This document shows, piece by piece, positions 1 to 17,100 of a stretch of DNA of 26,474 bases. This stretch comes from a virus. The notes below the pieces were generated by a model, which saw only the letters and a program-made list of their open reading frames with translations, did not search any database and was not told the DNA's origin. The number at the start of each line of letters is the position of its first letter. Within the stretch, counting starts at the first letter, position 1. Location: positions 1 through 26,474 of IMG/VR virus record IMGVR_UViG_3300034093_000632; one strand, written 5' to 3'. The position numbers were made by a program, and so were the translations under genes.

Positions 1-1
1 T

Positions 2-100
2 ATTAGTGGAAAATATTTAATATCAGAACTCAAACACGAAATAGGAAACAACAAAGCGTATACTCAACTTTCTTTGATACGCAATACATTTACTGCTTAA
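2..100 (+). CDS. C-terminal end of an upstream structural protein (partial)
   Basis: An open frame enters from the left edge and stops at TAA 98-100, giving 32 residues that begin ISGKYLISELKHEIGNN. Phrases of the type 'sGkylIs.lkHei....Y.t.l.LirnTf' are, as I recall, typical of the C-terminus of gp27/gpD-like baseplate hub proteins. Lying directly before cp12 and gp5 fits that. The start lies outside the window, so the family call is an inference from a short tail; any other baseplate protein is possible. Confidence 0.45.
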   Translation: MSGKYLISELKHEIGNNKAYTQLSLIRNTFTA

Positions 101-103
101 ATA
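74..103 (+). promoter_or_regulatory. possible sigma70-type promoter before cp12
   Basis: TTGATA (74-79) is followed after 18 bases by TAAATA (98-103), overlapping the stop of the upstream gene. The stretch TTAAATA here also resembles a degenerate late octamer. Either could serve cp12. The match is weak, and a purine-rich GAGG (111-114) then gives a ribosome site 9 bases before the cp12 ATG. Confidence 0.3.
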
Positions 104-123
104 TAGTATAGAGGTACAAAAAA

Positions 124-336
124 ATGGAAAACATCGAAGCACACATTAAGAAAGATAAGGAAATTCTTGATGATCCGACACTTTCTCCTCAAATGCGGCG
201 TCACACTGAAGAGGAATTAAAAGAGTTACAAGCTTATCAAGAACGTCACCCAGATAATTCACACGATCCAACACCATTAGAACTTTACTGTGATGCACAT
301 CCTGATGCTGCAGAATGTAAAGTATATGATGATTAA
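124..336 (+). CDS. cp12: CP12-like Calvin cycle inhibitor protein
   Basis: A 70-aa acidic protein whose C-terminus is the CP12 signature: LELYCDAHPDAAECKVYDD, with Cys56 and Cys65 spaced C-x8-C as in the redox-active C-terminal pair of CP12. The middle (RRHTEEELKELQAY, about 25-38) stands where CP12 has its helical AWD-VEEL core, but lacks the Trp. The N-terminal Cys pair is absent. CP12 of cyanobacteria binds GAPDH and phosphoribulokinase under oxidising conditions and stops the Calvin cycle. Cyanophage copies are known auxiliary metabolic genes thought to push host carbon toward the pentose phosphate pathway for NADPH and nucleotides. It lies 5 bases before gp5 and so is probably co-transcribed with baseplate genes. 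GAGG 10 bases upstream supports the start. Confidence 0.85.
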   Translation: MENIEAHIKKDKEILDDPTLSPQMRRHTEEELKELQAYQERHPDNSHDPTPLELYCDAHPDAAECKVYDD

Positions 337-341
337 TTGAA

Positions 342-2456
342 ATGCAAGAATTATCGTCTGTAAGAAATTTCTTTGGTAAAGATCAATTAATTTGGTGGAT
401 CGGTCAAGTTACTGATCCTTCCAAAGGAAAGTGGAAAACTGCCACAGAAAGACAAAGAACGGAAGATGGTCAAGAGATTTATTCTCATCGTGTTCGAGTT
501 CGTATCATTGGATATCACGATTGTGAAGAAGATTTACCTGATGAAGATCTTCCTCTCGCTCACGTTCTTTTACCACCAAATAGAAGTGTAACCGCTGGTC
601 AAGGAGAGTTATCCAATTATCAAGGTGGTGAAGTTGTCATTGGATTTTTCTTGGATGGAGACGATGCCCAACAACCAGTAGTTTTTGGAACATTATTCAA
701 ACAGACATATCAGAAAGATACTCTGAAACAGAATGAGTATTCTTCGAAGAGATCAACGTGTTTTCAGCCTTGGACACCTCCTCAACCAATTCTTGGAAAA
801 CATCAAATCGTTGAAGAGAAAGTCAAAGAAGGAAATAGAACTCACTCATCAGACACTACAAAAGATCAGAAAACAGTTGCAAGTAAACAGAAAAGTGTTT
901 CTGAGGACAATGAATTAACTTTACCAAGCCCCTGTGAAGATACAGAGATTGGTAGAATTCAAAAGTTTATGATTGACTTTATTGAAAGGTTGAATGGATA
1001 TCAAAAGATTCTTGATGTCTACGTTGACCCCATAATGGGTAAAATTGTCAACATCAATGAAGATTTAAAAACGACGGCAGGAAAAATATTTGATACAATG
1101 ACGAATTTAATTCGTCGTGCTCGTGCTTGGTTAATTCAAGAAATTCATCAAAAGTTATCCAAGTTATTAGGAACAACAACACCAAAACCATTAGAACCTT
1201 ACACTGGGAAATCCGTACAGACCTTAACTGATTTAATCTTCTGTTTATTTGAAAAGATCATCAAAGATCTTTTCAAGTACATCATTGATAGTTTGACAAA
1301 TATGATTGGTAAAATCATTGATGTTCCTCAATGTGTGGTCGAGAATTTCTTAGGTGATATGTTAGGTCAATTGTTCAATGTTCTTGACAACACTCTTGGC
1401 CCTATTCTTTCACAAATCAACAATGTACTGGGTGGTATCTTAGGAAGTGTGAGTTCAATTATTTCTCAAGCTTTAAAGTATGCCAATCTGTTCTTAAGTA
1501 TTCTGGGTTGTGATGAATTAAAATGCCCAACTCCAACGAACTGGTCTGCAAGATATGGGCCTGCTCAAGGAGATATTGATAATTTCAACAAGATCTTAGG
1601 AAATGCATCATTGAGTTCTCTTGTTTCACCAGGATTGCAAGAAGTAGATGATATGATTCCTTCAAACGCTGGTGCTGGGGTTCCAGATTGTAGTAGTAAT
1701 GTATTCCGTTGTGGGCCTCCACTCGTTGATTTTGTTGGTGGTGGTGGAGAAAGTGCAACTGGTAGTGCAGTCATCAATGCAATCGGAAACATTATTGGTG
1801 TTGCAATTGATAACTCTGGATTTGGATTTACAGATCCTCCACTGATTACATTCTACGATAGATGTAAGAATGGATATGGTGGTGGTGGATATGCCATTAT
1901 TGGCCCAGTTTCGCCCGTGACTGATGATACTGGAACTGTTGTAGAAGATGATGATGGAAATCCACTGTATGTTCCAGATCCAAATGGTACAGAAACTGGA
2001 ATCGTAGATGTTGTGATCTTAGACCCTGGTGATAGTTACTTACCAAACACAACAGAAACATCAATCGATGAAAATGGAAATGAGATTGTTAAAGAAGTGA
2101 TTCCCGATTCAAACACCAACAGTGACGGTGTAAATTCATACATCACGGAAATTGGTAATGTTGTTGTACAAGATACTGGATATGGTTACTCAGATGATAC
2201 CACAATTTCGATTGTGGATGATACCAGTGGAGCTCAGATTGAAGTTATCGTGTCTGATGGATTTATTGTTGGTGCCAATGTATTGAATGGTGGATCAGGA
2301 TTTACATCACTTCCAGATTTGCAAATAAATAGTGACACTGGTGCTGGGGCGAGATTGTTGCCTGTTCTCAGATTTATTAAACTTGAGGAAGCTAAACAAT
2401 TTGCTGCAACAACTCAAGATGCCATAGTCACAGTTATTGATTGTGTTCAGAGATGA
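342..2456 (+). CDS. gp5: gp5-like baseplate hub / spike-base subunit
   Basis: 704 aa. Residues about 8-120 look like the gp5/VgrG OB-fold: DQLIWWIGQVTDP at the start, then VRVRIIGYHD, and a GGEVVIGFFLDGDDAQQPVVFG segment typical of phage baseplate V domains. Residues about 200-395 are a long amphipathic helical region. Residues about 465-690 are Gly/Asp-rich with repeated beta phrases (SGFGFTDPP, TGYGYSDDT, GGSGFTSLP). The T4 gp5 lysozyme domain and its octapeptide needle repeats are not visible, so this protein probably keeps the hub role without a built-in muramidase. The stop overlaps the next start (ATGA at 2453), which implies translational coupling. The gp5 role is inferred from the N-terminal domain and context; the 200-700 portion is unfamiliar. 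Confidence 0.8.
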   Translation: MQELSSVRNFFGKDQLIWWIGQVTDPSKGKWKTATERQRTEDGQEIYSHRVRVRIIGYHDCEEDLPDEDLPLAHVLLPPNRSVTAGQGELSNYQGGEVVIGFFLDGDDAQQPVVFGTLFKQTYQKDTLKQNEYSSKRSTCFQPWTPPQPILGKHQIVEEKVKEGNRTHSSDTTKDQKTVASKQKSVSEDNELTLPSPCEDTEIGRIQKFMIDFIERLNGYQKILDVYVDPIMGKIVNINEDLKTTAGKIFDTMTNLIRRARAWLIQEIHQKLSKLLGTTTPKPLEPYTGKSVQTLTDLIFCLFEKIIKDLFKYIIDSLTNMIGKIIDVPQCVVENFLGDMLGQLFNVLDNTLGPILSQINNVLGGILGSVSSIISQALKYANLFLSILGCDELKCPTPTNWSARYGPAQGDIDNFNKILGNASLSSLVSPGLQEVDDMIPSNAGAGVPDCSSNVFRCGPPLVDFVGGGGESATGSAVINAIGNIIGVAIDNSGFGFTDPPLITFYDRCKNGYGGGGYAIIGPVSPVTDDTGTVVEDDDGNPLYVPDPNGTETGIVDVVILDPGDSYLPNTTETSIDENGNEIVKEVIPDSNTNSDGVNSYITEIGNVVVQDTGYGYSDDTTISIVDDTSGAQIEVIVSDGFIVGANVLNGGSGFTSLPDLQINSDTGAGARLLPVLRFIKLEEAKQFAATTQDAIVTVIDCVQR

Positions 2457-3097
2457 CAAAGAAGAATCCCGTTTACGATAAAACTCCACCCCAGGATAAA
2501 AAACAATACACGAGAGAGACCACAGCTAGATATTCATTTCAGAGTGGTCAAGGAACAATTCACGGAAGAACTCTTTTTGAAGTCGTCACTCAAGAAGCTC
2601 AAGGATTCGGTTTTTATTCTGGAACTGGTCAGGGTGGTGTGAATAATGGGCCTGGCACTGGTCGTGCAGTTCTTGACACGCCAGGAATGTCTTATGAAGT
2701 TCTTGGTGCTGGTCTTAAAGCCAAAGGTAACGATAATACTGGTGTCAATCCTGCGAAGTATATTCTTTGCAAACACGGAGATATTATTCTGAATGCAGAA
2801 GATGGTGACATAATCTTAATGGGAAAGAATGTAAGAATTTTTGCTCAAGGTGGTGGTGATGATGGTGACTTTACTGTGAATGCAACCAAGGTTGTAAACG
2901 TTAAAGGAATGGATGTTCGACTTCAAGCAGAAAAGATTAGTCTCTCTGCAATGAATACGATGAATATTGTGTCGAAAGGTTTTATGGAAATGAACAGTGC
3001 ATTTGTGAATGTCGCGGCTGCTGGAGATCTTGACTTGACTTCGATTGGTCAATTGATCAAGGGTTTGGGTATTAGCACAAAGTTAAGTATCGGTTAA
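2453..3097 (+). CDS. beta-helix needle-like baseplate protein
   Basis: 214 aa starting MTKKNPVYDKTPP. I chose ATG 2453, which overlaps the gp5 stop as ATGA, over the in-frame TTG at 2441. The second half (about 108-214) is a run of short beta phrases, such as GDIILNAEDGDIILMGKNVR, VRLQAEKISLSA and NIVSKGFMEMNS, of the kind seen in triple-stranded beta-helices of phage spikes (gpV, gp5C, VgrG). No enzyme motif is seen. Translational coupling to gp5 suggests the two act in one complex, so this may supply the needle that gp5 lacks. It could also be a spike-tip or baseplate accessory protein. Confidence 0.6.
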   Translation: MTKKNPVYDKTPPQDKKQYTRETTARYSFQSGQGTIHGRTLFEVVTQEAQGFGFYSGTGQGGVNNGPGTGRAVLDTPGMSYEVLGAGLKAKGNDNTGVNPAKYILCKHGDIILNAEDGDIILMGKNVRIFAQGGGDDGDFTVNATKVVNVKGMDVRLQAEKISLSAMNTMNIVSKGFMEMNSAFVNVAAAGDLDLTSIGQLIKGLGISTKLSIG

Positions 3098-3098
3098 T

Positions 3099-3944
3099 AT
3101 GGCAAACTCACCAAAATACGGTTTTGAACATAAGTTGGTTGTAGGAACAACAGACGTATCCTATCTTCCAACAGATGCAACTCCAAACGGAACTTCTGTT
3201 CTGAATGGCCCAGTTTTTATTGGTTTGCCTCTTTCTGCTCCAGTTGCCAAAGCGGTTTTAAATGTTGGCCCACCAGCCCCACAAACGATACCAGGAACAA
3301 AACCACCACTGGTCACTCCGATCAGTGTTTGGGTGGATGGTCAACATACTCACGTTGGTCTTAAAATTCATAAAGGTGTAAGAACTCAAGAAGGATTAAA
3401 TGTTGTAAAGGGAGATAGAATCACCAAAGGTAATGTAATTACCAAAGGAAGACATTTGGTAAGTGATCTGGTTAAGTCTGAACAATTCATTGGTGGAAAA
3501 TTCATTGGTCAGTTTCAAGGAACAATTAATGTTCAATCTTGGAAAGGATTTGACGTTAATCATCCAAACAAAGAAGGGCATCGACTGAGACACATTTGTT
3601 TAGAAGGCCCAGAAGCTGGTGTTTATATCCGTGGAAAAACAAAAGATTCAGTAATCAATCTACCAGAATATTGGGTGAATTTTATTGATCCAGAAAGTAT
3701 CACAGTAACTCTTACTCAGATTGGTTCTTCTCAAGATTTGATTGTCGAAAGAATTGAAGAAGACAAAAGAGTTGTGATCAGATCTGGAAATGGATCTGAT
3801 ATTCATTGTTATTATGTCATTCACGCTTCACGAATCGATGGAGAGCCATTGATTATTGAATACGAGGGAGAAACTCCTGCTGATTATCCTGGATCATCAG
3901 ATCAGTTCTCTATCGCTGGATGGGACTACAGTCGAGGATCTTGA
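3099..3944 (+). CDS. baseplate/tail-fibre structural protein with conserved C-terminal domain
   Basis: 281 aa, starting one base after the preceding stop. Residues 1-80 are Pro/Gly-rich. Residues about 85-150 repeat short beta phrases (GVRTQEGLNVVKGDRITKGN). The C-terminal part from about residue 150 carries NKEGHRLRHICLEGPEAGVY, then LPEYWVNFIDPESITVTL, a combination I recognise from many marine phage tail and baseplate proteins of uncertain fold. It is not an S74 domain: there is no SDxRLK. The last gene of the baseplate run; its TGA overlaps the -35 box of the tRNA-Gly promoter. Role is inferred from context and shared domain only. Confidence 0.6.
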   Translation: MANSPKYGFEHKLVVGTTDVSYLPTDATPNGTSVLNGPVFIGLPLSAPVAKAVLNVGPPAPQTIPGTKPPLVTPISVWVDGQHTHVGLKIHKGVRTQEGLNVVKGDRITKGNVITKGRHLVSDLVKSEQFIGGKFIGQFQGTINVQSWKGFDVNHPNKEGHRLRHICLEGPEAGVYIRGKTKDSVINLPEYWVNFIDPESITVTLTQIGSSQDLIVERIEEDKRVVIRSGNGSDIHCYYVIHASRIDGEPLIIEYEGETPADYPGSSDQFSIAGWDYSRGS

Positions 3945-3969
3945 CAATTCATCAAAAATGTTGTACTAT
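3941..3969 (+). promoter_or_regulatory. sigma70-type promoter for tRNA-Gly
   Basis: TTGACA (3941-3946) is a perfect -35 box, followed after exactly 17 bases by TACTAT (3964-3969) as a -10. A start near 3976 would lie just before the tRNA at 3980. The -35 overlaps the TGA of the upstream gene. Host RNA polymerase could use it early in infection. It may also transcribe the genes downstream. Confidence 0.7.
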
Positions 3970-3979
3970 ATAAAAATGC

Positions 3980-4051
3980 GCGGCTGTAGTTCAGTGGTAG
4001 AACGCTATCCTTCCAAGTTAGATGTCGCCCGTTCAAATCGGGTCAGCCGCT
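3980..4051 (+). tRNA. tRNA-Gly (anticodon TCC)
   Basis: A full cloverleaf can be drawn: acceptor GCGGCTG/CAGCCGC (3980-3986/4044-4050), D arm GTTC/GAAC, anticodon arm CTATC/GTTAG with one T:T mismatch and loop CTTCCAA (anticodon TCC at 4012-4014), a 5-base variable loop, and T arm GCCCG-TTCAAAT-CGGGT. Discriminator T at 4051; CCA is not encoded. It reads GGA/GGG, and GGA is frequent in the phage structural genes here. Confidence 0.93.
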
Positions 4052-4068
4052 TATAAGAGGAATCATCG

Positions 4069-4890
4069 ATGAGAGACGAAACTCAAAGGATTTTAGTCGA
4101 ATACGAGAAAACAATTGACAAAAATCTGAATGTCATTGAACAGGGTAAGTTTCTTGTTGATGGTTTAGCAGGTGTCAGTGACACAAGTCGTGTTGGTATT
4201 ACACAAGATGACTTGATTGCATTAGAACAACAAGGAACTCCTCTAGATCGTTCAATTCAAGATCGAATTAACGATTACAATCCAATGACAGTCAATGTAG
4301 ACAGTCGTCTTGTTGCAATCGCAAGTTCAATCACCACAATCAAAACTGAAATTTATAACTTAATTGTTCAAGCCATTGGAGCTGGCCCTGGAACTGGATG
4401 TGGGCAATCCACTGGTATTTGTACAAACTACACTGGTGGTATTTCAACTTGTTTGGTTGGATATGGTCAATTAAAAAACGATCTATTCCAAGTTCGTGTA
4501 CAAAATATGAGTAATAGATCTTATGTAGATCTCGATCCCGCTTCGTATTCAACCTCTACATTATCCTCTTCGAATGTTGGTGTAGGATCTTTTAATATTG
4601 TAAGCAAAGATGGTGGAACTGCAATCGGATACACCGCGACTATTGTAAACACAGGTGGATGTTCGAGTTATTATACTCAAGTTACAAACAAGTATGCAGA
4701 GATCGATACTCTTAGATCTGAAGCGGATACACTGATTTCAACAATCAATGTTGCCAAAAGAGAACGGTCAAGTTTACAATACGAGAGATGGGCGATCTTC
4801 TATGGTAACGAACAAGCTGCACAAGAAAACACCAGACTCAGAACCACATCATCCAACATTCAATCATCCACACTTGAACCTTACGTATGA
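4069..4890 (+). CDS. probable virion structural protein
   Basis: 273 aa. The N-terminal 1-50 and the C-terminal 205-273 are helical and charged (EYEKTIDKNLNVIEQGKFLV near the start; TLRSEADTLISTINVAKRER near the end). The middle is Gly/Ser/Thr-rich with Cys residues (GPGTGCGQSTGICTNYTGG). No enzyme motif. RBS AGAGGAA lies just after the tRNA-Gly gene. The stop overlaps the next start (ATGA at 4887). I think proteins of this type occur beside gp5 in cyanophages, but I cannot name a family. Structural role is inferred from composition and place. Confidence 0.5.
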   Translation: MRDETQRILVEYEKTIDKNLNVIEQGKFLVDGLAGVSDTSRVGITQDDLIALEQQGTPLDRSIQDRINDYNPMTVNVDSRLVAIASSITTIKTEIYNLIVQAIGAGPGTGCGQSTGICTNYTGGISTCLVGYGQLKNDLFQVRVQNMSNRSYVDLDPASYSTSTLSSSNVGVGSFNIVSKDGGTAIGYTATIVNTGGCSSYYTQVTNKYAEIDTLRSEADTLISTINVAKRERSSLQYERWAIFYGNEQAAQENTRLRTTSSNIQSSTLEPYV

Positions 4891-5066
4891 GACCTGAAAC
4901 ACGATATTCAATGGAAATGTTATTTGGTGCTAAGTGGAATATTCCAACTGCCGCTCGTAATTGTGGTCTGACCAATAAAGAGATGAAGATCACATTTAAT
5001 GAATACTGTCGTTTACACCCACCTACATTTGTGGTAGAATCAAAAGATCAACTCAGTCTGTTTTGA
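4887..5066 (+). CDS. small hypothetical protein, HTH-like
   Basis: 59 aa (MRPETRYSMEMLFGAKWNIP...). The ATG overlaps the previous stop as ATGA, so it is probably translationally coupled. Residues about 17-42 (WNIPTAARNCGLTNKEMKIT) read like a helix-turn-helix: two short helices around a turn at NCGLTN. It ends with a DQLSLF tail. It could be a small DNA-binding protein; the HTH reading is by eye only. Confidence 0.6.
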   Translation: MRPETRYSMEMLFGAKWNIPTAARNCGLTNKEMKITFNEYCRLHPPTFVVESKDQLSLF

Positions 5067-5074
5067 GTTTTGAT

Positions 5075-5149
5075 GGCGGTGTAGCCCAATCGGCAGCAGG
5101 CAGTTGACTTAAAATCAATACAGTGCGAGTTCGAATCTCGCCACCGCTA
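5075..5149 (+). tRNA. tRNA-Leu (anticodon TAA)
   Basis: Acceptor GGCGGTG/CACCGCT (5075-5081/5142-5148, first pair a G:T wobble), a three-pair D stem with an enlarged D loop containing GG, anticodon arm GTTGA/TCAAT with loop CTTAAAA (anticodon TAA at 5110-5112), T arm GCGAG-TTCGAAT-CTCGC, discriminator A. CCA is not encoded. The variable loop is only 5 bases (5120-5124), unlike the long arm normal for tRNA-Leu. It would read TTA/TTG, common in the AT-rich genes here. Confidence 0.85.
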
Positions 5150-5168
5150 TTAGAGGATTATCCTCTAA
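5150..5168 (+). repeat. near-perfect palindrome after tRNA-Leu
   Basis: TTAGAGGAT (5150-5158) and its exact reverse complement ATCCTCTAA (5160-5168) flank a single base. It starts at the first base after the tRNA discriminator. No T-run follows, so it is not a standard terminator. It may be a tRNA 3' processing hairpin or a protein-binding site. Confidence 0.6.
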
Positions 5169-5179
5169 ATACACAAAAG

Positions 5180-5195
5180 TAGGAAACATCCTATG
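5180..5195 (+). promoter_or_regulatory. hairpin over the ribosome site and start codon
   Basis: TAGGA (5180-5184) can pair with TCCTA (5189-5193) around loop AACA. The stem hides the AGGA Shine-Dalgarno core and ends on the A of the ATG at 5193, so folding would limit initiation of the 89-aa gene. Five base pairs is a weak stem. Confidence 0.4.
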
Positions 5196-5462
5196 AAGTA
5201 CCGAATTGATGCCAGATATGTTTGGTATAATCAAGGAACTCAATTGGTTCTGATGTATTTTATAGAAGGTATTCCATTTACTTTTGACGAACTTCCAGAC
5301 GAATCAATTTACGATCTGGAACTCATATCAGTAGCGGACAAAGAACGACGTTACGAACCAGATAATTTGTATAAAACATCATTCTATTTGATTGATGAAC
5401 AATGTCATCCAATGTTGTTCGAACTCGAACTGGAAAATCCAGAAATGTTACCTGCTGATTGA
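5193..5462 (+). CDS. hypothetical acidic protein
   Basis: 89 aa, rich in Asp/Glu and aromatics (MKYRIDARYVWYNQGTQLVL, then GIPFTFDELPDESIYDLELI). The pattern suggests a small beta sheet followed by a helix, with no catalytic or metal motif. It sits between tRNA-Leu and tRNA-Thr, 5 bases before the latter, in the accessory islet. Start supported by TAGGA 8 bases upstream. No function can be named. Confidence 0.6.
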   Translation: MKYRIDARYVWYNQGTQLVLMYFIEGIPFTFDELPDESIYDLELISVADKERRYEPDNLYKTSFYLIDEQCHPMLFELELENPEMLPAD

Positions 5463-5467
5463 TTTTT

Positions 5468-5540
5468 GCTCCTAAAGCATTTAGTGGCGATGTACCTGAC
5501 TTGTAATCAGGAGAGGATGGTTCAATTCCGTCTGGGAGCT
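5468..5540 (+). tRNA. tRNA-Thr (anticodon TGT)
   Basis: Acceptor GCTCCTA/TGGGAGC (5468-5474/5533-5539), D arm GCAT/ATGT, anticodon arm CCTGA/TCAGG with loop CTTGTAA (TGT at 5502-5504), a 4-base variable loop, T arm GATGG-TTCAATT-CCGTC, discriminator T. CCA is not encoded. It reads ACA/ACG; ACA is frequent in the Thr-rich fibre proteins. Confidence 0.92.
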
Positions 5541-5559
5541 CTGAGTTCATAAAACTCCA

Positions 5560-5718
5560 ATGTCATTAATTTCACAACAAGACCGTCAAATGGTCATTGA
5601 AGCATTAGAATATTATATCTACGATATGGAAAAAAATAACTGCAACGATGCAGCGATTTATTCTTACAATACACTTCTGAACTGGATTCGTTTGGAGTAT
5701 CAAAAGAATGAAAATTAA
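5560..5718 (+). CDS. small hypothetical protein
   Basis: 52 aa (MSLISQQDRQMVIEALEYYI...). It reads as two helices (residues 5-25 and 30-48) rich in Tyr, Glu and Asn, perhaps a small helical hairpin. It begins 20 bases after tRNA-Thr and overlaps the next start by 11 bases. No clear ribosome site. No family recognised; support is codon pattern and tight packing. Confidence 0.5.
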   Translation: MSLISQQDRQMVIEALEYYIYDMEKNNCNDAAIYSYNTLLNWIRLEYQKNEN

Positions 5719-5872
5719 TCTCTGGCATTGTAAAGATATGAATCAATGGCGTTGGACGCTCTGTGATTCTTCGAGACCCATTCGTCGTCAAGAATCTGGG
5801 CAACAACCACTTCTTCGTGATGCAATGAATGATGTTGCAAATACTGTAGAATTTTTGTTGAATGAAAAGTGA
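5708..5872 (+). CDS. small hypothetical protein
   Basis: 54 aa (MKINLWHCKDMNQWRWTLCD...). Two Trp-containing beta phrases followed by an Arg/Gln-rich turn (SSRPIRRQESGQQPLLRDAM) and a C-terminal helix, typical of small cyanophage proteins that form a beta-beta-alpha unit. It overlaps both neighbours by 11 bases, which argues for a real, coupled gene. Function unknown. Confidence 0.55.
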   Translation: MKINLWHCKDMNQWRWTLCDSSRPIRRQESGQQPLLRDAMNDVANTVEFLLNEK

Positions 5873-6455
5873 TTATCACATTGACAGAATCAATAAGTCC
5901 GAAACCGCAGAATTACTTCTGCGGTTTCATTATTTGAAAGATCTGTCAAAAGGTTTCAAAGTAGGATATAATTACGGTCTATACAAGAATAATGATTTCT
6001 GTTTTATGAACATTGGTGGTGCTTGTGGAGTTTGTATCTTCACTGGATTACCTGTTCCAGAAATCGCAAAAGGTGCATTTGGATTAGAAAGAAATGAACA
6101 ACAAGGGCTCTTCGAACTCTCAAGACTTTGCATTCACCCTGATACGCAGTCACGCGAATATAACATCACTTCTTGGTTTGTGTCACGAGCGATTAGACAA
6201 CTTCGGAAAGATACTGAAGTTAAAGCAATCATTTCTTATGCTGATTCAGATTACCATACTGGTACAATTTATCGGGCTTGCAACTTTAAATATGCAGGTC
6301 TCACAGATCCTAAAAAAGACTTCTACTTTGCAGACGGAACTAAACACTCTCGTGGAAGAGTCAAAGGTGCGGAAGGGGAGTGGAAAGACAGAAGTCGTAA
6401 ACACAGATATGTGATGGTGTTTGATAAAAGTTTGAAGCTGTTATGGGATAAATAA
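5862..6455 (+). CDS. Mom-like GNAT-fold protein, putative DNA adenine-modification enzyme
   Basis: 197 aa. An N-terminal FHYLK phrase (22-26) and ELSRLCIHPD (85-94) precede a helix with SWFVSRA (104-110). IISYADSDYHTGTIYRACNF (123-142) and DGTKHSRG (158-165) complete a pattern I recognise from the Mom family. Mu Mom, a GNAT-related enzyme, converts adenine in DNA to a carbamoylmethyl/methylcarbamoyl form that blocks restriction. If the function holds, this phage would protect its DNA in the same way. It overlaps the preceding small gene by 11 bases. A perfect 12-bp hairpin lies at codons 14-23. A plain GNAT acetyltransferase on another substrate is the main alternative. No Com-like zinc-finger gene is seen beside it. 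Confidence 0.7.
   Translation: MKSDYHIDRINKSETAELLLRFHYLKDLSKGFKVGYNYGLYKNNDFCFMNIGGACGVCIFTGLPVPEIAKGAFGLERNEQQGLFELSRLCIHPDTQSREYNITSWFVSRAIRQLRKDTEVKAIISYADSDYHTGTIYRACNFKYAGLTDPKKDFYFADGTKHSRGRVKGAEGEWKDRSRKHRYVMVFDKSLKLLWDK
5901..5928 (+). promoter_or_regulatory. perfect 12-bp hairpin inside the Mom-like gene
   Basis: GAAACCGCAGAA (5901-5912), loop TTAC, then the exact complement TTCTGCGGTTTC (5917-5928). It begins 37 bases after the ATG. ATTATTT follows instead of a T-run, so it is more likely an mRNA element slowing translation or stabilising the transcript than a terminator. Confidence 0.65.
6447..6454 (+). promoter_or_regulatory. T4-type late promoter octamer
   Basis: GATAAATA overlaps the stop of the Mom-like gene and ends 17 bases before the ATG at 6472. 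T4-like phages use TATAAATA-like boxes for late transcription by the gp55 sigma factor. Confidence 0.6.
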
Positions 6456-6471
6456 CTAAAAAAAGACTATA

Positions 6472-8733
6472 ATGGCACTTACTAAAATCACTGGTGACGT
6501 TATTGCAACAAACACTAGCATTACCGCAGTTGGCGCTACGTTTACTGGTAATGTTTCGATCGCTGGGACAATTAGCTACGAAGATGTCACCAACGTAGAC
6601 TCGGTTGGTCTGATTACTGCAAGAAGTGGAATTAATATTACTAGTGGTGGATTGATTGTTACTGGAGTAAGCACGGTTTCTGCAGGTAGTACTAGTGCTC
6701 CATCAATCAGCCCAAGTGGAGATACGAACACCGGCATCTTCTTCCCATCGGCTGATACGATCGCTTTTGGAGAAGGTGGTTCGGAAGTATTAAGGATTGA
6801 TTCATCTGGTCGTCTCTTAGTTGGCACATCTACAGCGCGTAGTAATTTCTTTGGCACAACTCTTAGTTCTTTAACTCAAACAGAAGGAACAGGTGGTTCT
6901 ACTGCACGGGGTGCTTTAAGCGTAATTAATAATGATGTAAGCAATAACCCTGCTTACGTTCTTCTTGGAAGATCAGGTGCAGCAACACTTGGTTCAAATG
7001 CTGCGGTTGTCAGTGGAAGCCGCCTTGGAACTTTAACTTTTCACGGTGCAGATGGTACTAGTTTTATCGAAGCGGCAACTGTTGCCGGTGAAGTAGATGG
7101 GACGCCTGGCACCAGTGACATGCCGGGCAGGCTTGTTTTTTCTACGACCTCAGATAATGCTGGCTCGCCCACCGAGCGGATGCGCCTGGACTCCAGTGGC
7201 GGATTCCAGTTTAAGGGCGCAGGTACTGCAGGTGTCACCCAAGCCGTCAGCTTCAACGGCAGCGCACCTGTTAATAGCCTCGTTATTGACTCGTCGGGGC
7301 GGGTAGGTCTGGGGACTAGTAGCCCTGGGGCATTGTTGCATTTATCAGCAACTGCAGGCAACCAAGAACTTCGGCTGAGTGATACTACTAACACCGCGAT
7401 GGGACGAATGTATGTCGCTAACGGTACTTACCTTATTTCAGAAACCGCTCATCCGATTGTTTTCCAGACTAATGCCACCAATCGCATGACGATTGATTCA
7501 AGTGGCAATGTCAACATTGATAGCAATACACTCTACGTTGATGCCACCAATAACAGAGTAGGGATTGGCGCTACGACGGTTGGCGATTTACTTCACCTCA
7601 GGGCTGCGACTACACCCCATCTGCGTATTGACCACACTACAACCAGTTCGTTTGGAGCGGTTCAATTTTATGAAGATACAACCCAGCAGGCATCCATTGG
7701 CGCACTGGGTTCTACCAGCAGTGGAACAGGCGGTGGCAATGCACTGCAGATTTGGAATTTCCTAAACGCGCCAACTGTATTTGCTACAAACAATCAAGAA
7801 CGCGCCCGCATCGACAGCTCGGGACGCTTGTTAGTTGGCACGTCTTCTAGCCGTGCCATTTATGGCATTTCATCCGCAATCCAAATAGAAGGTACTGGTT
7901 TTGACACAAGTTCCTTAAGTCTAATCTGCAACAACAATGGTTCTCAAAGTGCATACCTTGCGCTGGGAAGAACAAGAGGCACGTCTGTTGGTAGCACAAC
8001 AACGATTGCAAACGGTGACATTCTTGGTGCTGTTTCATTTACGGGTGCACATAACTCTGGGCTTACAGGCGCCTCTGCTTCTATTACTGGGTACGTAGAC
8101 GGCACCCCCGGCGCTAACGACATCCCAGGCCGCCTAGAGTTCTCCACTACCGCCGATGGAGCGAGCAGCCCGACGGAGCGGATGAGGATTAATAGCAACG
8201 GTATAATACAAGCAAGAAATGGCGCGGGCGATACACTTAATCTTTACAACGCAGTGTCTGCAGGTACTAGCAGTGGATTTATTTACGGAGTGCATAGCAG
8301 TACGTCTGCATACAATGGCACAACGAGCTTTGTTGTTTACACTAATGGCAACGTAGTTAACACAAACGGTAGCTACACAACACTTTCCGACGTCAGGCTA
8401 AAGGAGAACATTGTTGACGCAGGTTCCCAATGGGACGACCTGAAAGCAATTCGGATTCGCAACTGGAACTTCAAGGAAGAGACGGGGCACGAAACCCATC
8501 GTCAAATTGGTCCCATTGCCCAGGAGTTAGAGCAGGTATGCCCTGGTCTTGTTTTTGACACTCCAGACCGCGATGCAGATGGTAACAAAACCGGCGAAGT
8601 CACCAAGGGTGTTAATCAATCCGTTCTTTATATGAAGGCTGTCAAGGCGTTACAAGAAGCAATGGAACGCATCGAGCAACTGGAAGCAAGCAACGCTGAT
8701 CTGCTGGCCAGAGTAACAGCTCTTGAGTCATAA
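6472..8733 (+). CDS. tail fibre protein with C-terminal S74 chaperone-protease
   Basis: 753 aa. The head (about 1-110) has the module shared with other fibres here: TFTGNVSIAGTISYEDV (about 24-40) and GDTNTGIFFPSADTIAF. The middle is beta-rich with fibre repeats (DSSGRLLVGTS, RVGLGTSSPGALLHL). The tail from Ser639 is a Peptidase_S74 intramolecular chaperone: SDVRLKENI with the Ser639/Lys644 dyad, IGPIAQELEQVCP, then a coiled coil to the end. In this family the tail trimerises the fibre and then cuts itself off before the Ser, leaving a mature fibre of about 638 aa. The tail region is richer in GC than the head, suggesting a joined cassette. Preceded by a late octamer. Confidence 0.85.
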   Translation: MALTKITGDVIATNTSITAVGATFTGNVSIAGTISYEDVTNVDSVGLITARSGINITSGGLIVTGVSTVSAGSTSAPSISPSGDTNTGIFFPSADTIAFGEGGSEVLRIDSSGRLLVGTSTARSNFFGTTLSSLTQTEGTGGSTARGALSVINNDVSNNPAYVLLGRSGAATLGSNAAVVSGSRLGTLTFHGADGTSFIEAATVAGEVDGTPGTSDMPGRLVFSTTSDNAGSPTERMRLDSSGGFQFKGAGTAGVTQAVSFNGSAPVNSLVIDSSGRVGLGTSSPGALLHLSATAGNQELRLSDTTNTAMGRMYVANGTYLISETAHPIVFQTNATNRMTIDSSGNVNIDSNTLYVDATNNRVGIGATTVGDLLHLRAATTPHLRIDHTTTSSFGAVQFYEDTTQQASIGALGSTSSGTGGGNALQIWNFLNAPTVFATNNQERARIDSSGRLLVGTSSSRAIYGISSAIQIEGTGFDTSSLSLICNNNGSQSAYLALGRTRGTSVGSTTTIANGDILGAVSFTGAHNSGLTGASASITGYVDGTPGANDIPGRLEFSTTADGASSPTERMRINSNGIIQARNGAGDTLNLYNAVSAGTSSGFIYGVHSSTSAYNGTTSFVVYTNGNVVNTNGSYTTLSDVRLKENIVDAGSQWDDLKAIRIRNWNFKEETGHETHRQIGPIAQELEQVCPGLVFDTPDRDADGNKTGEVTKGVNQSVLYMKAVKALQEAMERIEQLEASNADLLARVTALES
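7091..7190 (+). repeat. fibre module repeat A, diverged copy
   Basis: Encodes EVDGTPGTSDMPGRLVFSTT followed by SPTERMRLDSSG. The same protein module as the other A copies, but with many silent and replacement changes. Confidence 0.7.
7798..7848 (+). repeat. fibre module repeat B
   Basis: Encodes ERARIDSSGRLLVGTSS. The DNA is almost identical to 19569-19620 in another fibre gene, and its second half recurs at 21191-21222, 23117-23148 and 23680-23718. Confidence 0.75.
8095..8190 (+). repeat. fibre module repeat A
   Basis: Contains the 38-base core (8140-8177, starting ttctccactaccgccga) that recurs in six places across four fibre genes with a single variable T/C position. It encodes FSTTADGASSPTERMRI. 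Confidence 0.85.
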
Positions 8734-8758
8734 CAACTTTACTCACTAATTTGCCCTG

Positions 8759-8766
8759 AATAAATA
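8759..8766 (+). promoter_or_regulatory. T4-type late promoter octamer
   Basis: AATAAATA in the gap between two structural genes, 27 bases before the ATG at 8794. Confidence 0.55.
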
Positions 8767-8793
8767 TAACAGAAGAAAATCTATGACAATAAG

Positions 8794-11700
8794 ATGCCTC
8801 TCTCAAGACTAGAGAACTTTCTCAAAAATATTCAGGGCAATGTCATTTACGTTGATCCGAATGAGCTAGATGCAACGGATAGTATTGAAAACCAAGGTAA
8901 CTCACAAACGAGACCTTTCAAAACTATTCAGAGAGCTCTTATTGAAGCCGCAAGGTTTTCGTATGTAGCAGGTCAAAGAAATGATAAGTTTGATCAAACC
9001 ACGATCATTCTTGCCGCTGGTACTCACTACGTAGACAATAGACCTGGTTGGATTCCTTATGCATCGGGTACTAATGCAAGATATTATACTCGATTTGGTT
9101 CAAGTAACCTTATTCTAAGCCCATATGGCTTAAGTAGTAATTTTGATTTAACATCATCCGATAACGAACTGTATAAGTTAAACAGTGTTCGTGGTGGTGT
9201 AATTATTCCAAGAGGAACATCAATCGTTGGTAAGGATCTTCGTAAGACCAAGATCTATCCAAAGTATGTTCCAGATCCAGAAAACAACAATATTGAGTCT
9301 TCAGCTATCTTTAGACTGACCGGTGCGTGTTATATTTCTCAGTTTACAATCTTTGATGGTAATCCTTCTGGTAACGTTTATAAGGACTACACATCAAACA
9401 CTTATGCACCTAACTTCTCCCACCATAAACTGACTTGTTTTGAGTATGTTGATGGGGCAAATGATGTTGTTATTAATGACAACTTCTTGAACATCAGTTC
9501 AACATTCACTGACCTTGATATGTATTATCAAAAGGTTGGGGATGTTTATGACTCTGGAACTGGAAGACCGATTGAACCTGATTTCCCATCAGGATCGGTT
9601 GATTTCCAAACAAGAGTTGAAGAGTATCGAATCGTTGGTTCAAAAGGTGAACAGGTTGGTATTTCATCAATCAAATCTGGTGACGGTGCAACTGCATCGA
9701 CAACCATCACAGTTGATTTAGAATCTGCATTGGTTGATCTTTCGATTGACACTCCAGTTCGTATTTCTGGTGTCAGCACTTCTGGATACAATGGCATTCA
9801 CGTTGTATCGGAAGTTGTATCCACCACACAATTCAAGTACGTTGTACCTTCTGCTCCCAATAATCCACTTCCAACATTAACAAGTGCAGACGTTAATATT
9901 GAAGTTGATACGATTAACTCTGCATCTCCATATCTGTTTAATCTTTCCAAGAGATCCGTATTTGGTCTGAATGGTATTCACTTAGATGGATCAAAAGTCA
10001 CTGGATTCAAGAGTGGTCTGGTTGCACAATTCACTGGTAATGCACTGCAGAAAGATGATAAGGCGTTCGTAAGATACAACACCACATCTGGTCAGTATGA
10101 TGATTATACGGCTGTTAACAATCTTCACTTAGATCCAGAAGCTGTTTACAAACCTGGATACAAATCCACTCATATTAAAGTGTCGAATGATTCAATCATT
10201 CAGGCTGTTTCAGTATTTGCAATCGGTCATAACAATCAATACGTTGCTGAGAGTGGTGGAGAACTGTCTCTCGCTAACTGCAATGCAAACTTTGGTGAAA
10301 ATGCTCTGTTGTCTGAAGGTTTCAAACAAGCCGCATTAGGCCCAGACAATGCAGCGTATATCACTCACATCATTCCACCAAAGGAAATTGTTGATGGAGA
10401 GACAAATGTTGATTACTTGTCCATCGATGTAGACAAGACCATTGGTATTGGTACAGTCACTAGACTGTATTTTGAAGGATACACAAGTCAAGATTCACCT
10501 CCTCCATACATTGTTGATGGTTATCGTATTGGTGCAAATACAAATGATCGATTAAGAGTTCAATTGAACATTCGTGGAAACGAAGGAGATTTTGTTTCCA
10601 AAATTGTAATGCCATCAGCAACAGGTATTACTACAAATACAGGTGAAAAGTCTTATGTTGTTTCCAATTCTATTGGTGTTAGCAACATCAGTTCTAACAT
10701 CATTAGTTTCAAGACAAATCACAATCTGATTGATGGAGAATCGATTCGTATTCTTTCAAACAATGGATTCTTACCTGATGGTTTGGACGATGATCAAGTT
10801 TATTATGCCATTGTCAGTGGTTTAAGCAGCAATGCAATCAAAGTTGCAAGAACGTTCAACGATGCTCTGGAAGGAACGTCTCTGACAATCAACAACACGG
10901 GTGGAGAACTGAGTGTTGTCAGCCGTGTCTCTGATAAGAAATCAGGTGATATTGGTCACCCAATTCAATTTGATGTTCCAAATAAGAACTGGTACATTAA
11001 CGTTTCGAATCAAACCATTGATAACGAGATTTATCCAACAATCATTGGATTTGGAACAACAGCCTTAGGTGCAAACACACCAAAGACATATTTCACAAGA
11101 AAAGAAAATTCAAGAAGTATTGAAGATTCGATCTATCGTCTCAGATATGTGATTCCTGCAGGTATCACCACTGCAAGACCACCAATCGAAGGATACATCA
11201 TTCAAGAAACGAGTGATACAACTGGTGCTACGGATTCAGAAATCACTGCGACATCTCTGACAAACATTGATGATCAAAAGAACTTCCACTTCTTAAGTGA
11301 AGCATCTTGGAACAGCAACATCGCTACCGTGATGTCAGAAGAACCACATAATTTAACTGTCGGTTCGATTGTCAATGTAAACAAAATTACTTCATCCAAC
11401 AACGCGACTGGTATTGGTAGCTCTGGTTTTAATGGTCGTTTTGAAGTTATTGGTATTACAAGTGCAAGAGGATTCCAATATTCTCTCACCGATAATCCTG
11501 GATCATCAACACTTAGCAATCAAACGAGAACTGTTGATGATCTTCCAAACTTCTCAAGAAATGAATACGAAAAGACATTCTACATCTACAAGGTAGAAGA
11601 AGTCAAGAAACACATCACGGGTGAACAGGATGGCGTTTATCATCTGGTCTGTTTGCATTATGATGCATCTCCAACAGTTTCTCCATTTACAGGATTCAAG

Positions 11701-13821
11701 TTCAGTCAACCAGTCAAAGATCTGTATCCACAAATTGATAGAGACAATCCAGTATCTGATCCTTCTGCAGCCATCAGTCACGCTGAATCAAAACCAATTG
11801 GTAAGGTTGTATCCAGTGATGTAAGAAAGAGTATCACAAAAGATACGATTCAGAAGTTCTTAGGGCAGAATGATATCAGTGTTGGTATCACCAGTATCGT
11901 TACAGATATGGGCACTGGTCTTGCTCATACAGCTTATCTGTCAGTTGAACATCAATTAAACTCGATTGTATCTGTTGGTATTGCTTCTTCTGGTGTTGGT
12001 TATGGTTCTGGAAGTTCAGCCACATTATATGGTGCTAAGTTAGTTGGTGTTGGTGTTGGTAGCACTGCAGGTAGTGGTGCGATTGCAAATATCACTGTAG
12101 ATGCAAATGGTGGTATCACTGGTGTAACGATTGTCAATGGTGGTGGTGCTTATGGTATTGGAAACTCCTTACAAGTTATTGGAGTCACCACATCAGCTGG
12201 TCACGTTGTCGGTATTCTGACAGTTACTAACATCTATCAAGGTGTTGGTGAAGTCATTCAGATCGCTGGTATTCGTTCAGACACAAACCTGAAACTGAAT
12301 AATACATTCAGAGTCACTGCAACTCCGAGTGCAAAAACTGTCTCGTTTGCTTCCACGGAAGTCATTAACTTCGGTATGTCATTGGGTGGCCCAAACAATG
12401 TAACTGTTGGAGCTGCAACTTCGGATGCAACGATGTCAGTCATTGGCCCATCAATCGGTGTCACTGCAATCTCTTATGACATTAACACTGGTATTGCCAC
12501 CGTAGGTACAGGTATCACTGCTCACGGGTTCCTTGCTGGTTCTAAGATTAAACTGGTTGGTGCTGGTCAAACTGCATACAATGGAGTCTTTACTGTTAAG
12601 GAAAGAGTTGGTCTTACGACATTTACGGTACATCTTGGAGTATCAACTGTCTCTGCACCAGCCTTAACTGGTTCTGTCTTTGCTTTCCCTGGTGGTTACT
12701 CATCTAACGATGGTGCGATCACGACTGCCGATGAAAAGGTCGGTAGCAGAATGAACAGTATGTACGCTGGAATTACCACAACGATGTCTGCTGGTATTTC
12801 TTCAACTTCATCTTCAATCAGTATCACCAATGCCACATCGAGTGGTTTGAACATTGGTGATTACATTATGGTGAACGACGAGATGATGAGAATCAGTAAC
12901 ACTTCAATTAATACTGTATTCAGAGGTGTGTTTGGAACACAATCAACAAATCATTCTTCTGGAACCGTTATCAAGAAGGTAAGTGTTGTTCCTGTAGAAC
13001 TGAGAAGAAGTTCTCTGATTCGTGCTGCAAACCAAACCTTTGAGTATGTTGGTTTCGGGCAAGGTAACTATTCTGTTGCTTTACCAGAGAATCAAACAAA
13101 AGTTCTGACAACAGAAGATCGTAAACTGGGTCAAACACAGAGAAGAAATGGTGGGCAGAATTACTACACAGGTCTGAATGATGTTGGTGAATACTTCATT
13201 GGTAATGCCGTCATCAAAGGAACTACGGGCGAAGAAGAAGTATTTGATGCTCCAATTCCAACGGTAACTGGTGAAGACAAAGGTATTAAAAATGCCCTGA
13301 CTGATAGTATCAAAGTAACTGGTGGTGCAAATAAAGACATTCTGTCTGAGTTTGATGGCCCAACGTTGTTCTCCAGTAAGATCACATCAACCTCTGTTGA
13401 TGGTATTGAAGCTGTATCTCTTCAATTACAAGGTGATGCAAAAGTTGCGAGAAAGATTACTGTAGGTATTGCAACTCCAAGTGTCGGTGGTGCTGCTGGT
13501 GATGTCACGTTCTCATCAAAACCATCAGAAAGAGGATATGCTGGTTGGATTTACACCACACAAAACAGCTGGAGAAGATTTGGTCTTGTATCTCGTGATG
13601 CTGATGCAATGGTTGTGAGTGTCGATAGAATCGGCATTGGCACCACCAGCCCAGCGAACACTTTAAATGTAATTGGTATCAGTTCGTTTAGAGGTGATGT
13701 ACGAGTTGGTGTTGGAACCACTCAAGGTTTAATTCTGACAGCTCCAAATGGATCACTGTATCGTTTGACCGTCAGCAACACTGGAGTTGTGAGTGCGATT
13801 TCAACCAGTGTTCTTTCATAA
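8794..13821 (+). CDS. very large virion structural / tail fibre protein
   Basis: 1675 aa, the longest gene here. The N-terminus has YVDPNELDATDSIENQGNSQ, then TRPFKTIQRALIEAARFSY (about 20-58), the start of a right-handed beta-helix (pectate-lyase type) fold. I recognise this opening from cyanophage structural proteins. The centre has Gly-rich beta repeats (about 1065-1130, for example GGITGVTIVNGGGAYGIGN) resembling those in the gp5 C-terminus. Near residue 1580 GYAGWIYTTQNSWRRFG begins a small domain, followed by a fibre-like RIGIGTTSPANTLNVIG phrase. There is no S74 or G2 chaperone tail. Codon use is uniformly AT-leaning, unlike the mosaic fibres around it. Likely a tail-fibre shaft or baseplate appendage; a polysaccharide-binding or cleaving activity is possible but no catalytic residues are evident. 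Confidence 0.75.
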   Translation: MPLSRLENFLKNIQGNVIYVDPNELDATDSIENQGNSQTRPFKTIQRALIEAARFSYVAGQRNDKFDQTTIILAAGTHYVDNRPGWIPYASGTNARYYTRFGSSNLILSPYGLSSNFDLTSSDNELYKLNSVRGGVIIPRGTSIVGKDLRKTKIYPKYVPDPENNNIESSAIFRLTGACYISQFTIFDGNPSGNVYKDYTSNTYAPNFSHHKLTCFEYVDGANDVVINDNFLNISSTFTDLDMYYQKVGDVYDSGTGRPIEPDFPSGSVDFQTRVEEYRIVGSKGEQVGISSIKSGDGATASTTITVDLESALVDLSIDTPVRISGVSTSGYNGIHVVSEVVSTTQFKYVVPSAPNNPLPTLTSADVNIEVDTINSASPYLFNLSKRSVFGLNGIHLDGSKVTGFKSGLVAQFTGNALQKDDKAFVRYNTTSGQYDDYTAVNNLHLDPEAVYKPGYKSTHIKVSNDSIIQAVSVFAIGHNNQYVAESGGELSLANCNANFGENALLSEGFKQAALGPDNAAYITHIIPPKEIVDGETNVDYLSIDVDKTIGIGTVTRLYFEGYTSQDSPPPYIVDGYRIGANTNDRLRVQLNIRGNEGDFVSKIVMPSATGITTNTGEKSYVVSNSIGVSNISSNIISFKTNHNLIDGESIRILSNNGFLPDGLDDDQVYYAIVSGLSSNAIKVARTFNDALEGTSLTINNTGGELSVVSRVSDKKSGDIGHPIQFDVPNKNWYINVSNQTIDNEIYPTIIGFGTTALGANTPKTYFTRKENSRSIEDSIYRLRYVIPAGITTARPPIEGYIIQETSDTTGATDSEITATSLTNIDDQKNFHFLSEASWNSNIATVMSEEPHNLTVGSIVNVNKITSSNNATGIGSSGFNGRFEVIGITSARGFQYSLTDNPGSSTLSNQTRTVDDLPNFSRNEYEKTFYIYKVEEVKKHITGEQDGVYHLVCLHYDASPTVSPFTGFKFSQPVKDLYPQIDRDNPVSDPSAAISHAESKPIGKVVSSDVRKSITKDTIQKFLGQNDISVGITSIVTDMGTGLAHTAYLSVEHQLNSIVSVGIASSGVGYGSGSSATLYGAKLVGVGVGSTAGSGAIANITVDANGGITGVTIVNGGGAYGIGNSLQVIGVTTSAGHVVGILTVTNIYQGVGEVIQIAGIRSDTNLKLNNTFRVTATPSAKTVSFASTEVINFGMSLGGPNNVTVGAATSDATMSVIGPSIGVTAISYDINTGIATVGTGITAHGFLAGSKIKLVGAGQTAYNGVFTVKERVGLTTFTVHLGVSTVSAPALTGSVFAFPGGYSSNDGAITTADEKVGSRMNSMYAGITTTMSAGISSTSSSISITNATSSGLNIGDYIMVNDEMMRISNTSINTVFRGVFGTQSTNHSSGTVIKKVSVVPVELRRSSLIRAANQTFEYVGFGQGNYSVALPENQTKVLTTEDRKLGQTQRRNGGQNYYTGLNDVGEYFIGNAVIKGTTGEEEVFDAPIPTVTGEDKGIKNALTDSIKVTGGANKDILSEFDGPTLFSSKITSTSVDGIEAVSLQLQGDAKVARKITVGIATPSVGGAAGDVTFSSKPSERGYAGWIYTTQNSWRRFGLVSRDADAMVVSVDRIGIGTTSPANTLNVIGISSFRGDVRVGVGTTQGLILTAPNGSLYRLTVSNTGVVSAISTSVLS

Positions 13822-13824
13822 ATA
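13817..13824 (+). promoter_or_regulatory. T4-type late promoter octamer
   Basis: CATAAATA overlaps the stop codon of the 1675-aa gene and ends 28 bases before the ATG at 13853. The leader between has a GGGT...ACCC pair around a GGAGAG ribosome site. Confidence 0.6.
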
Positions 13825-13852
13825 AAAAGAAAAGGGTGGAGAGTGAAACCCG

Positions 13853-15037: not shown

Positions 15038-15043
15038 TAGGAA

Positions 15044-15376
15044 ATGGCAAACACTTTTAAACTCAAAACAAAATCAAACGTAGGTGTAACCACAGTTGGT
15101 ATTTACACCTGCCCATCAGCAACAACAACTGTTGTGATTGGTATCACTCTTTCAAATACTTCTGGAGCTGGAGTCAATGTAGGAGTTGGTGTTACAAGAT
15201 TGGCTGCAAACGGAGAAAATATTGATCTTCTGAAGAACGCCCCTCTTCCACAAGGATCATCTCTTGAATTTATGCAAGGTAACAAAGTAGTCTTACAAAC
15301 AGGAGATTGTGTAAGAGTGAGCAGTGACACAAACAACAGTGTTGATGCTGCTCTGACGATTATGGAGATTACCTGA
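15044..15376 (+). CDS. small virion structural protein
   Basis: 110 aa (MANTFKLKTKSNVGVTTVGI...). Reads as a single beta-sandwich: alternating hydrophobic strands, SGAGVNVGVGVTRL in the middle, and a late motif FMQGNKVVLQTGDCVRV. RBS TAGGAA directly before the start; its TGA overlaps the next ATG by one base (TGATG). This beta pattern is common in small phage tail or capsid decoration proteins; exact role unknown. No catalytic motif. Confidence 0.6.
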   Translation: MANTFKLKTKSNVGVTTVGIYTCPSATTTVVIGITLSNTSGAGVNVGVGVTRLAANGENIDLLKNAPLPQGSSLEFMQGNKVVLQTGDCVRVSSDTNNSVDAALTIMEIT

Positions 15377-17073: not shown

Positions 17074-17075
17074 TT

Positions 17076-17083: not shown

Positions 17084-17100
17084 TCTAAAAACACAAGAAG

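What the first reader, a model, noticed from the sequence alone, without database searches (positions are those of the whole stretch)
124..336. CP12 metabolic gene embedded between baseplate genes, with only the C-terminal redox pair
The 70-aa product ends in the CP12 signature with Cys56/Cys65, but has no N-terminal Cys pair and no Trp in the core. It sits 5 bases from gp5, so the carbon-metabolism switch may be expressed with virion genes. Seen: motifs and spacing. Known: cyanophage CP12 as an inhibitor of GAPDH/PRK. Inferred: late or dual expression.
Basis: partly seen in the sequence, partly recalled or inferred. Interest (0 to 1): 0.55.

Follow-up and report, generated by a model that had tools for sequence, protein, structure and literature searches.

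The report
Phage CP12 gene in baseplate operon
A virus of photosynthetic bacteria carries a small gene, CP12, thought to shut down carbon fixation, set between two tail genes; the protein is of the ordinary kind that such viruses and their hosts carry, and only its likely tail-gene-linked timing deserves a follow-up.

Summary
Bases 124-336 encode a 70-aa CP12 (PF02672 E 6.9e-14) with only Cys56/Cys65 and no Trp, 5 bases before gp5 and 23 after a tail-protein gene. The 'missing' N-terminal pair is ordinary: 66 of 66 distinct phage CP12s and 57 of 57 distinct CP12s from the genome collection (six look phage-type) have only the C-terminal pair. cp12 'near gp5' is in print (PMC3037559, passage). 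The addition is a regulatory pattern. In 57 of 80 related viral contigs CP12 lies directly between tail gene and gp5. Where it abuts the tail gene (under 12 nt) no late-promoter-like NTAAATA lies in the 45 nt upstream (0 of 40 loci); with a wider gap or elsewhere it mostly does (44 of 49). The window has TTAAATA at -27. Late or middle-plus-late expression with virion genes is plausible, unproven; the one cp12 timing I could read (P-HM2, other locus) is middle, and that cp12 also has ATAAATA. Most likely function: GAPDH (perhaps PRK) inhibitor of the known C-terminal-pair type. A new member of a known kind; modest interest.

The parts
1..100 (+). 3' end of a tail-protein gene (phrog_350 type); its TAA stop is 98-100
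   Evidence: Sequence; full ORF in the near-identical contig L003, phrog_350 E 2.1e-77
97..103 (+). TTAAATA, late-promoter-like element 27 nt before the CP12 ATG, overlapping the tail gene's stop codon (one mismatch to the cyanomyovirus late motif NATAAATA)
   Evidence: NATAAATA as late promoter: PMC2984593 passage. Function inferred
110..114 (+). AGAGG, possible ribosome-binding site for CP12
   Evidence: sequence; inference
124..336 (+). CP12, 70 aa, C-terminal-Cys-pair type
   Evidence: PF02672 E 6.9e-14; phrog_627 E 4.9e-31; AlphaFold2 mean pLDDT 91.8
289..318 (+). Cys56...Cys65 loop, the predicted GAPDH-binding redox loop
   Evidence: translation; aligned to the C-terminus of solved CP12 chains 6gfo and 3zdf; 6gfo is titled cyanobacterial GAPDH with full-length CP12
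342..2456 (+). gp5-like baseplate hub / tail lysozyme, next cistron
   Evidence: phrog_1922 E 1.5e-90

Best explanation
This is a cyanophage auxiliary metabolic gene coding for a CP12 of the C-terminal-pair type, the type that marine Synechococcus and Prochlorococcus carry. Most likely its C-terminal loop, closed by a Cys56-Cys65 disulfide, enters host GAPDH and blocks it. Its N-terminal half is predicted to be a helix hairpin that needs no disulfide and may dock PRK. Carbon fixation is then throttled so that ATP and NADPH go to phage synthesis. In this phage the gene sits in the tail/baseplate gene row and is probably transcribed from a late-type promoter at 97-103 plus read-through from the tail gene, hence together with gp5. 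Shown: identity, cysteine pattern, gene order, motif and its conserved position, conservation. Inferred: disulfide state, GAPDH/PRK binding, timing, effect on metabolism.
For: PF02672 over its cut-off. The PDB sequence matches with E under 0.05 are all CP12 or CP12-domain chains (7 of the 9 listed; the other two are colicin immunity entries at E 0.7-0.9); Foldseek's top two hits, though weak (E 0.017 and 0.020), are CP12 bound to GAPDH, 6ghr and 6ghl. In 28 chosen phage CP12s 20 positions are invariant, including both Cys and, in the N-terminal half, I4 H7 I8 D11 R25 R26 H27 E31 L32 L35 Y38; the matching I4, H7, I8, D11, His29, Glu33, Leu37 and Tyr40 are invariant in 23 chosen host CP12s. AlphaFold2: helices 4-15, 22-41, 51-58, pLDDT 91.8 for phage; a like pattern, pLDDT 90.9, for the WH7803 protein. 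pS well above pN between window CP12 and relatives (0.62 vs 0.14 for L031; most such dS values are saturated); among 74 pairs with dS 0.2-1, not independent, median dN/dS is 0.10, highest 0.38. Tail-CP12-gp5 order in 57 of 80 viral loci and in isolates S-T4, DSL-LC02 and DSL-LC03. NTAAATA at -27 here, and at -26 to -31 in 29 of 32 distinct upstreams of relatives whose CP12 is either isolated or 12 nt or more from the tail gene. Seven of 15 other gene starts checked in the window have ATAAATA at -24 to -36, all seven in the tail-fibre region.
Against: The motif before CP12 is TTAAATA, one base off NATAAATA. In P-HM2 cp12 belongs to the middle cluster (PMC5082946, passages), yet it too has ATAAATA upstream, next to a TTGACA, so the motif does not prove late timing. 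A review passage says CO2 fixation stops about 2 h after infection by S-RSM4, which has cp12, against about 4 h for S-PM2, which lacks it (PMC10452541): this fits the function but speaks for early or middle action there; I did not look at S-RSM4's cp12 context. No RNA or binding data for this phage. The conserved N-terminal half may bind something other than PRK. The VIA-align Z of 4.8 to 6gfo_E is no better than unrelated helical hairpins.
Confidence: 0.7

Rival explanations
1. CP12 is a middle gene despite its place: overlapping early and late-type promoter elements switch it on during DNA replication, and it is merely carried among virion genes.
For: P-HM2 cp12 and the other auxiliary metabolic genes of that phage are middle, and 95% of genes shared between P-HM2 and P-SSM2 keep their class (PMC5082946, passages); a review says middle mode in cyanomyoviruses may use overlapping early and late promoters (PMC2984593, passage).
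Against: P-HM2 cp12 lies between an endonuclease gene and talC, not at gp5. In 40 of 40 abutting loci no NTAAATA lies in the 45 nt upstream, so there CP12 very probably shares the tail gene's transcript. The sigma-70 scan lists no site that would drive CP12 in the window, though that scan fares no better than shuffles.
Confidence: 0.3
2. GAPDH-only inhibitor: without the N-terminal Cys pair it cannot build the GAPDH-CP12-PRK complex and acts on GAPDH alone.
For: Early work held both disulfides necessary for the ternary complex (PMC3906501, passage); AWD_VEE core and N-terminal pair are absent.
Against: The N-terminal half keeps invariant residues in phage and host and is predicted to fold without a disulfide, which points to a kept partner.
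Confidence: 0.4
3. A decaying host relic or chance ORF with no function.
For: No functional data for this phage.
Against: Conserved sequence, pN low relative to pS, over cut-off Pfam match, matches in hundreds of phage records.
Confidence: 0.02
4. CP12 made with baseplate proteins is packed in the virion and delivered with the genome, acting at once after infection.
For: Only its tight place between tail gene and gp5.
Against: No virion proteome was looked at; the published models have it made in the infected cell.
Confidence: 0.02

Closest known systems
Cyanophage CP12 (phrog_627; T4-GC 337), e.g. Synechococcus phages S-T4, S-RIM50, Syn9, S-SM1, Prochlorococcus phage P-HM2
   Same: 70-75 aa in the 66 distinct proteins viewed, C-terminal Cys pair only, conserved RRH...EL...DPxxxELxC...EC core
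   Different: Context: directly before gp5 here and in S-T4, DSL-LC02 and DSL-LC03; in Syn9, S-SM1, S-RIM50, ACG-2014b and P-SSM7 cpeT (with tRNAs or other genes in some) lies between; in P-HM2 it precedes talC
Host CP12 (C-terminal-pair type) of marine Synechococcus / Prochlorococcus
   Same: Two C-terminal Cys, no Trp, like predicted helices
   Different: Separate branch (100/100) from the phage proteins in the tree; 44-53% identical to the window protein in the host-type loci listed
Canonical four-Cys CP12 with solved structures (6gfo, 3qv1)
   Same: C-terminal Cys-loop and acidic tail that aligns with the solved CP12 chains
   Different: The window protein has no N-terminal Cys pair and no AWD_VEE core; definition from PMC3906501

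Membership tests
CP12 domain (PF02672) | Score above the Pfam curated cut-off over the full profile | tested here: met
   52.8 bits vs 22.7, residues 2-69 on profile 3-70 of 70
CP12 domain (PF02672) | C-terminal Cys pair around a central Pro | tested here: met
   Cys56, Pro60, Cys65
Canonical (four-Cys) CP12 | N-terminal Cys pair | tested here: not met
   No further Cys in the protein
Canonical (four-Cys) CP12 | AWD_VEE core | tested here: not met
   Core reads RRHTEEELKEL, no Trp
C-terminal-pair CP12 of marine picocyanobacteria and their phages | Only the C-terminal pair, shared by relatives | tested here: met
   66 of 66 distinct phage and 57 of 57 distinct genome-collection sequences; the class name CP12-C is in a figure legend of PMC3906501
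CP12 | Redox-dependent inhibition of GAPDH/PRK | not testable with these tools
   Needs purified proteins
T4-type late gene | NATAAATA promoter upstream | tested here: inconclusive
   TTAAATA at -27, one mismatch; conserved position in relatives
T4-type late gene | Late transcript peak | not testable with these tools
   In the papers I looked into I found no time course for this phage or for S-T4, DSL-LC02 or DSL-LC03

The most novel reading that the evidence does not exclude
In cyanomyoviruses CP12 has repeatedly moved between two regulatory states: an autonomous gene with its own late-type promoter about 27 nt upstream, and a promoterless cistron set flush between a tail gene and gp5 and translated with them. 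In the second state Calvin-cycle shut-off would be timed to virion assembly and not, as measured in P-HM2, to the DNA-replication phase.
Probability: 0.35. Interest if true: 0.5.

Novelty: new member of a known kind. Interest (0 to 1): 0.3.

Why it matters
Phage CP12 is a standard example of viral reprogramming of carbon fixation and is placed, from P-HM2, in the middle, DNA-replication phase. If in many phages it is tied to late tail genes, the timing and perhaps the purpose of the shut-off differ among phages, which can be tested with isolates such as S-T4 and DSL-LC03.

Tried and rejected
The idea that the absent N-terminal Cys pair is peculiar to this phage was rejected. A chance ORF was rejected. 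A sigma-70 promoter directly before CP12: none listed, and the scan of 1-6600 found fewer sites than shuffles, 14 against a mean of 20.4. The first genome-contig scan with the window protein alone found no relative; the alignment query did. A near-identity DNA search with 25 kb gave 59 records with no more than 1% of the query covered in the 20 rows shown, tail-fibre pieces, tRNA matches and one unannotated record, no close isolate. VIA-align put CP12 chain 6gfo_E at Z 4.8, tied with unrelated helical hairpins, so fold comparison adds little. The tree of 73 CP12s has only 70 columns and an unsettled bootstrap: use it only for 'more than one change of context'. The gp5 distances are extrapolated and often negative; I used only the 60-nt threshold; the tail and gp5 queries of that call include copies from some of the isolates, so those isolates match themselves. 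The absence of the motif in abutting genes is partly a constraint, since that stretch codes for the tail protein. Where P-SSM2's cp12 (53.8 kb) lies relative to gp5 was not looked at.

Papers: Thompson 2011, Stanley 2013 and the Syn9 transcriptome paper are not held. Passages only were seen of PMC3906501, PMC3037559, PMC5082946, PMC9964418, PMC10452541, PMC10665884, PMC9406205, PMC5931967, PMC9723779, PMC2984593 and PMC7238727; all other papers only as search listings.

Full report
What is there. The window is a 26,474-base virus record. Bases 124-336 encode 70 aa ending in LELYCDAHPDAAECKVYDD with Cys56 and Cys65 as the only cysteines and no Trp. Pfam gives CP12 at E 6.9e-14, over the cut-off and over nearly the whole profile; PHROGs gives phrog_627 at E 4.9e-31, which that library lists as of unknown function. 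The best PDB sequence matches are CP12 chains. Downstream, 5 bases on, begins a gp5-like baseplate hub/lysozyme (phrog_1922); upstream ends a phrog_350 tail protein, 23 bases before the CP12 ATG.

The cysteine pattern is ordinary. I collected 80 viral loci (the best of 294 confirmed) and ten isolate regions. They give 66 distinct CP12 proteins; all 66 have exactly two Cys, in the C-terminal positions, and one has a Trp, which lies just before the first Cys of P-SSM7 and not in the core. In the genome collection 80 loci (best of 288) give 57 distinct CP12s; all 57 have the same two Cys and no Trp. By my reading six of these 57 (L092, L093, L094, L096, L099, L100) are phage-type, leaving 51 host-type, WH7803 and many Prochlorococcus among them. 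The query motif holds the first Cys but does not constrain the part where the N-terminal pair would lie. A Pfam search of five of these genomes finds one CP12 each in four and two in one; the four copies my script could read there are of this type. So the phage has the form its hosts have. That phage CP12s resemble the C-terminal part, and that marine picocyanobacteria are the exception among groups that have a classical copy, is already in a review (PMC3906501, passages).

Protein. In 28 chosen phage CP12s 20 columns are invariant, spread over both halves. AlphaFold2 with 23 phage rows gives pLDDT 91.8 with helices 4-15, 22-41 and 51-58; 23 host rows with WH7803 first give 90.9 with helices 4-21, 24-43 and 53-60. 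The N-terminal helix pair, which canonical CP12 staples with a disulfide (recalled), is thus predicted to form without one. This is a prediction from natural alignments, not a demonstration, and I had no four-Cys CP12 as a control. Foldseek's two best hits are CP12 in GAPDH complexes but weak (E 0.017 and 0.020), and VIA-align does not separate CP12 from unrelated hairpins.

Gene order. Of 80 viral loci, 57 have the tail gene within 60 nt upstream and gp5 within 60 nt downstream; 19 have neither; 4 are partial or unclear. This is a sample of the loci most like the window, not a census. The first ATG after the CP12 stop overlaps it by one base in 19 of 59 loci and lies 3-6 nt on in 33 of 59 (first ATG, not proven start). 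Isolates S-T4, DSL-LC02 and DSL-LC03 have the order tail-CP12-gp5. S-RIM50, ACG-2014b, P-SSM7, Syn9, S-SM1, S-CREM1 and S-H25 have a tail or structural gene, then CP12, then cpeT and/or tRNAs or other genes, then gp5. P-HM2 and S-TIM5 have CP12 elsewhere. That talC and cp12 occupy variable places, some near gp5 and often near tRNAs, was published in 2010 (PMC3037559, passage).

Promoter pattern. A late promoter NATAAATA has been named for cyanomyoviruses (PMC2984593, passage). In the window 7 of 15 other gene starts checked, all in the tail-fibre region, have ATAAATA 24-36 nt upstream. Before CP12 lies TTAAATA at -27, with the tail gene's stop inside it. Across the 80 viral loci, identical upstreams counted once (59 distinct), NTAAATA in the -45 to -15 span occurs in 14 of 14 isolated CP12s (at -27, -28 or -31), 15 of 18 embedded ones with a gap of 12 nt or more (at -26 to -29), 0 of 26 that abut the tail gene, and 0 of 1 unclear locus; random window positions have it in 1.6%. 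Counting all 90 rows with isolates and any place in the 45 nt upstream: 0 of 40 abutting, 24 of 28 with a wider gap, 20 of 21 elsewhere, and 1 of 1 of unknown upstream; exceptions are L032, L047, L062, L080 and S-TIM5 (L084). No NTAAATA lies inside cp12 in the 40 abutting loci, and in 32 of these 40 no ATAAATA occurs in up to 1,400 nt upstream; so I did not locate the promoter of that tail-gene row. The rows are related, so these counts are not independent; grouped at 80% identity within context and scored by majority they are 9 clusters without motif to 0 with (abutting), 12 with to 0 without (gap), 5 with to 1 without (isolated) and 1 with (unknown). On a CP12 tree the abutting state needs at least 4 changes by well-supported branches, and the 66 phage CP12s form one group apart from the seven host sequences used.

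Reading. Abutting CP12 is very probably co-transcribed with the tail gene and gp5; the window's CP12 adds a late-like element of its own. Late or middle-plus-late expression is the best inference. Against it, P-HM2 cp12 peaks with middle genes (PMC5082946, passages) and has ATAAATA together with TTGACA upstream, and CO2 fixation is said to stop about 2 h after infection by S-RSM4, which has cp12, earlier than with S-PM2, which lacks it (PMC10452541 and PMC10665884, passages). The proposed effect, diversion of carbon and reductant from the Calvin cycle, follows the published model for phage CP12 and was not tested here.

Verdict. A real, well-identified, ordinary phage CP12 in a known neighbourhood. 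The possible addition is the context-dependent promoter pattern; in the listings of my ten library searches and the passages I read I saw no description of it, but I read no paper whole and key papers are not held.

Noticed in passing
window 5862-6455: Mom-like DNA modification protein (PF25680 E 3.3e-24; phrog_1384) near tRNA genes, in a cyanophage.
   Followed up: no
window 6472-24684: Run of large tail-fibre-type ORFs (6472, 8794, 13853, 17101, 20530, 22540; small ORF at 22334), these seven starts with ATAAATA 24-36 nt upstream; several share repeated segments seen in the translations; three were scanned (one in part) and match tail-fibre PHROGs.
   Followed up: partly
window 3980-4051, 5074-5150, 5468-5541: tRNA-Gly(TCC), tRNA-Leu(TAA) and tRNA-Thr(TGT) downstream of the gp5 cluster.
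   Followed up: no
window 25009-25491: Possible SprT-like metallopeptidase, below the Pfam cut-off (E 0.0066); phrog_10499 E 1.5e-43.
   Followed up: no
L092, L093, L094, L096, L100: Phage-type CP12 in contigs titled Euryarchaeota MAGs or Nonlabens xiamenensis; gp5 matches lie downstream in L093, L094, L096 and L100, so these look like cyanophage contigs in other assemblies.
   Followed up: partly
L061, L050, L037, L039 and like loci: CP12 with ATAAATA about 27 nt upstream and no tail gene or gp5 found nearby; after the stop in some (L039, L049, L061) comes a repeat and T-rich stretch that looks like a terminator (by eye).
   Followed up: partly
L179 (second CP12 of the genome behind L111); L124: More divergent CP12 copies with only the C-terminal pair in picocyanobacteria; L124 and L167 bear the same strain name, so that strain also seems to have two.
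   Followed up: no
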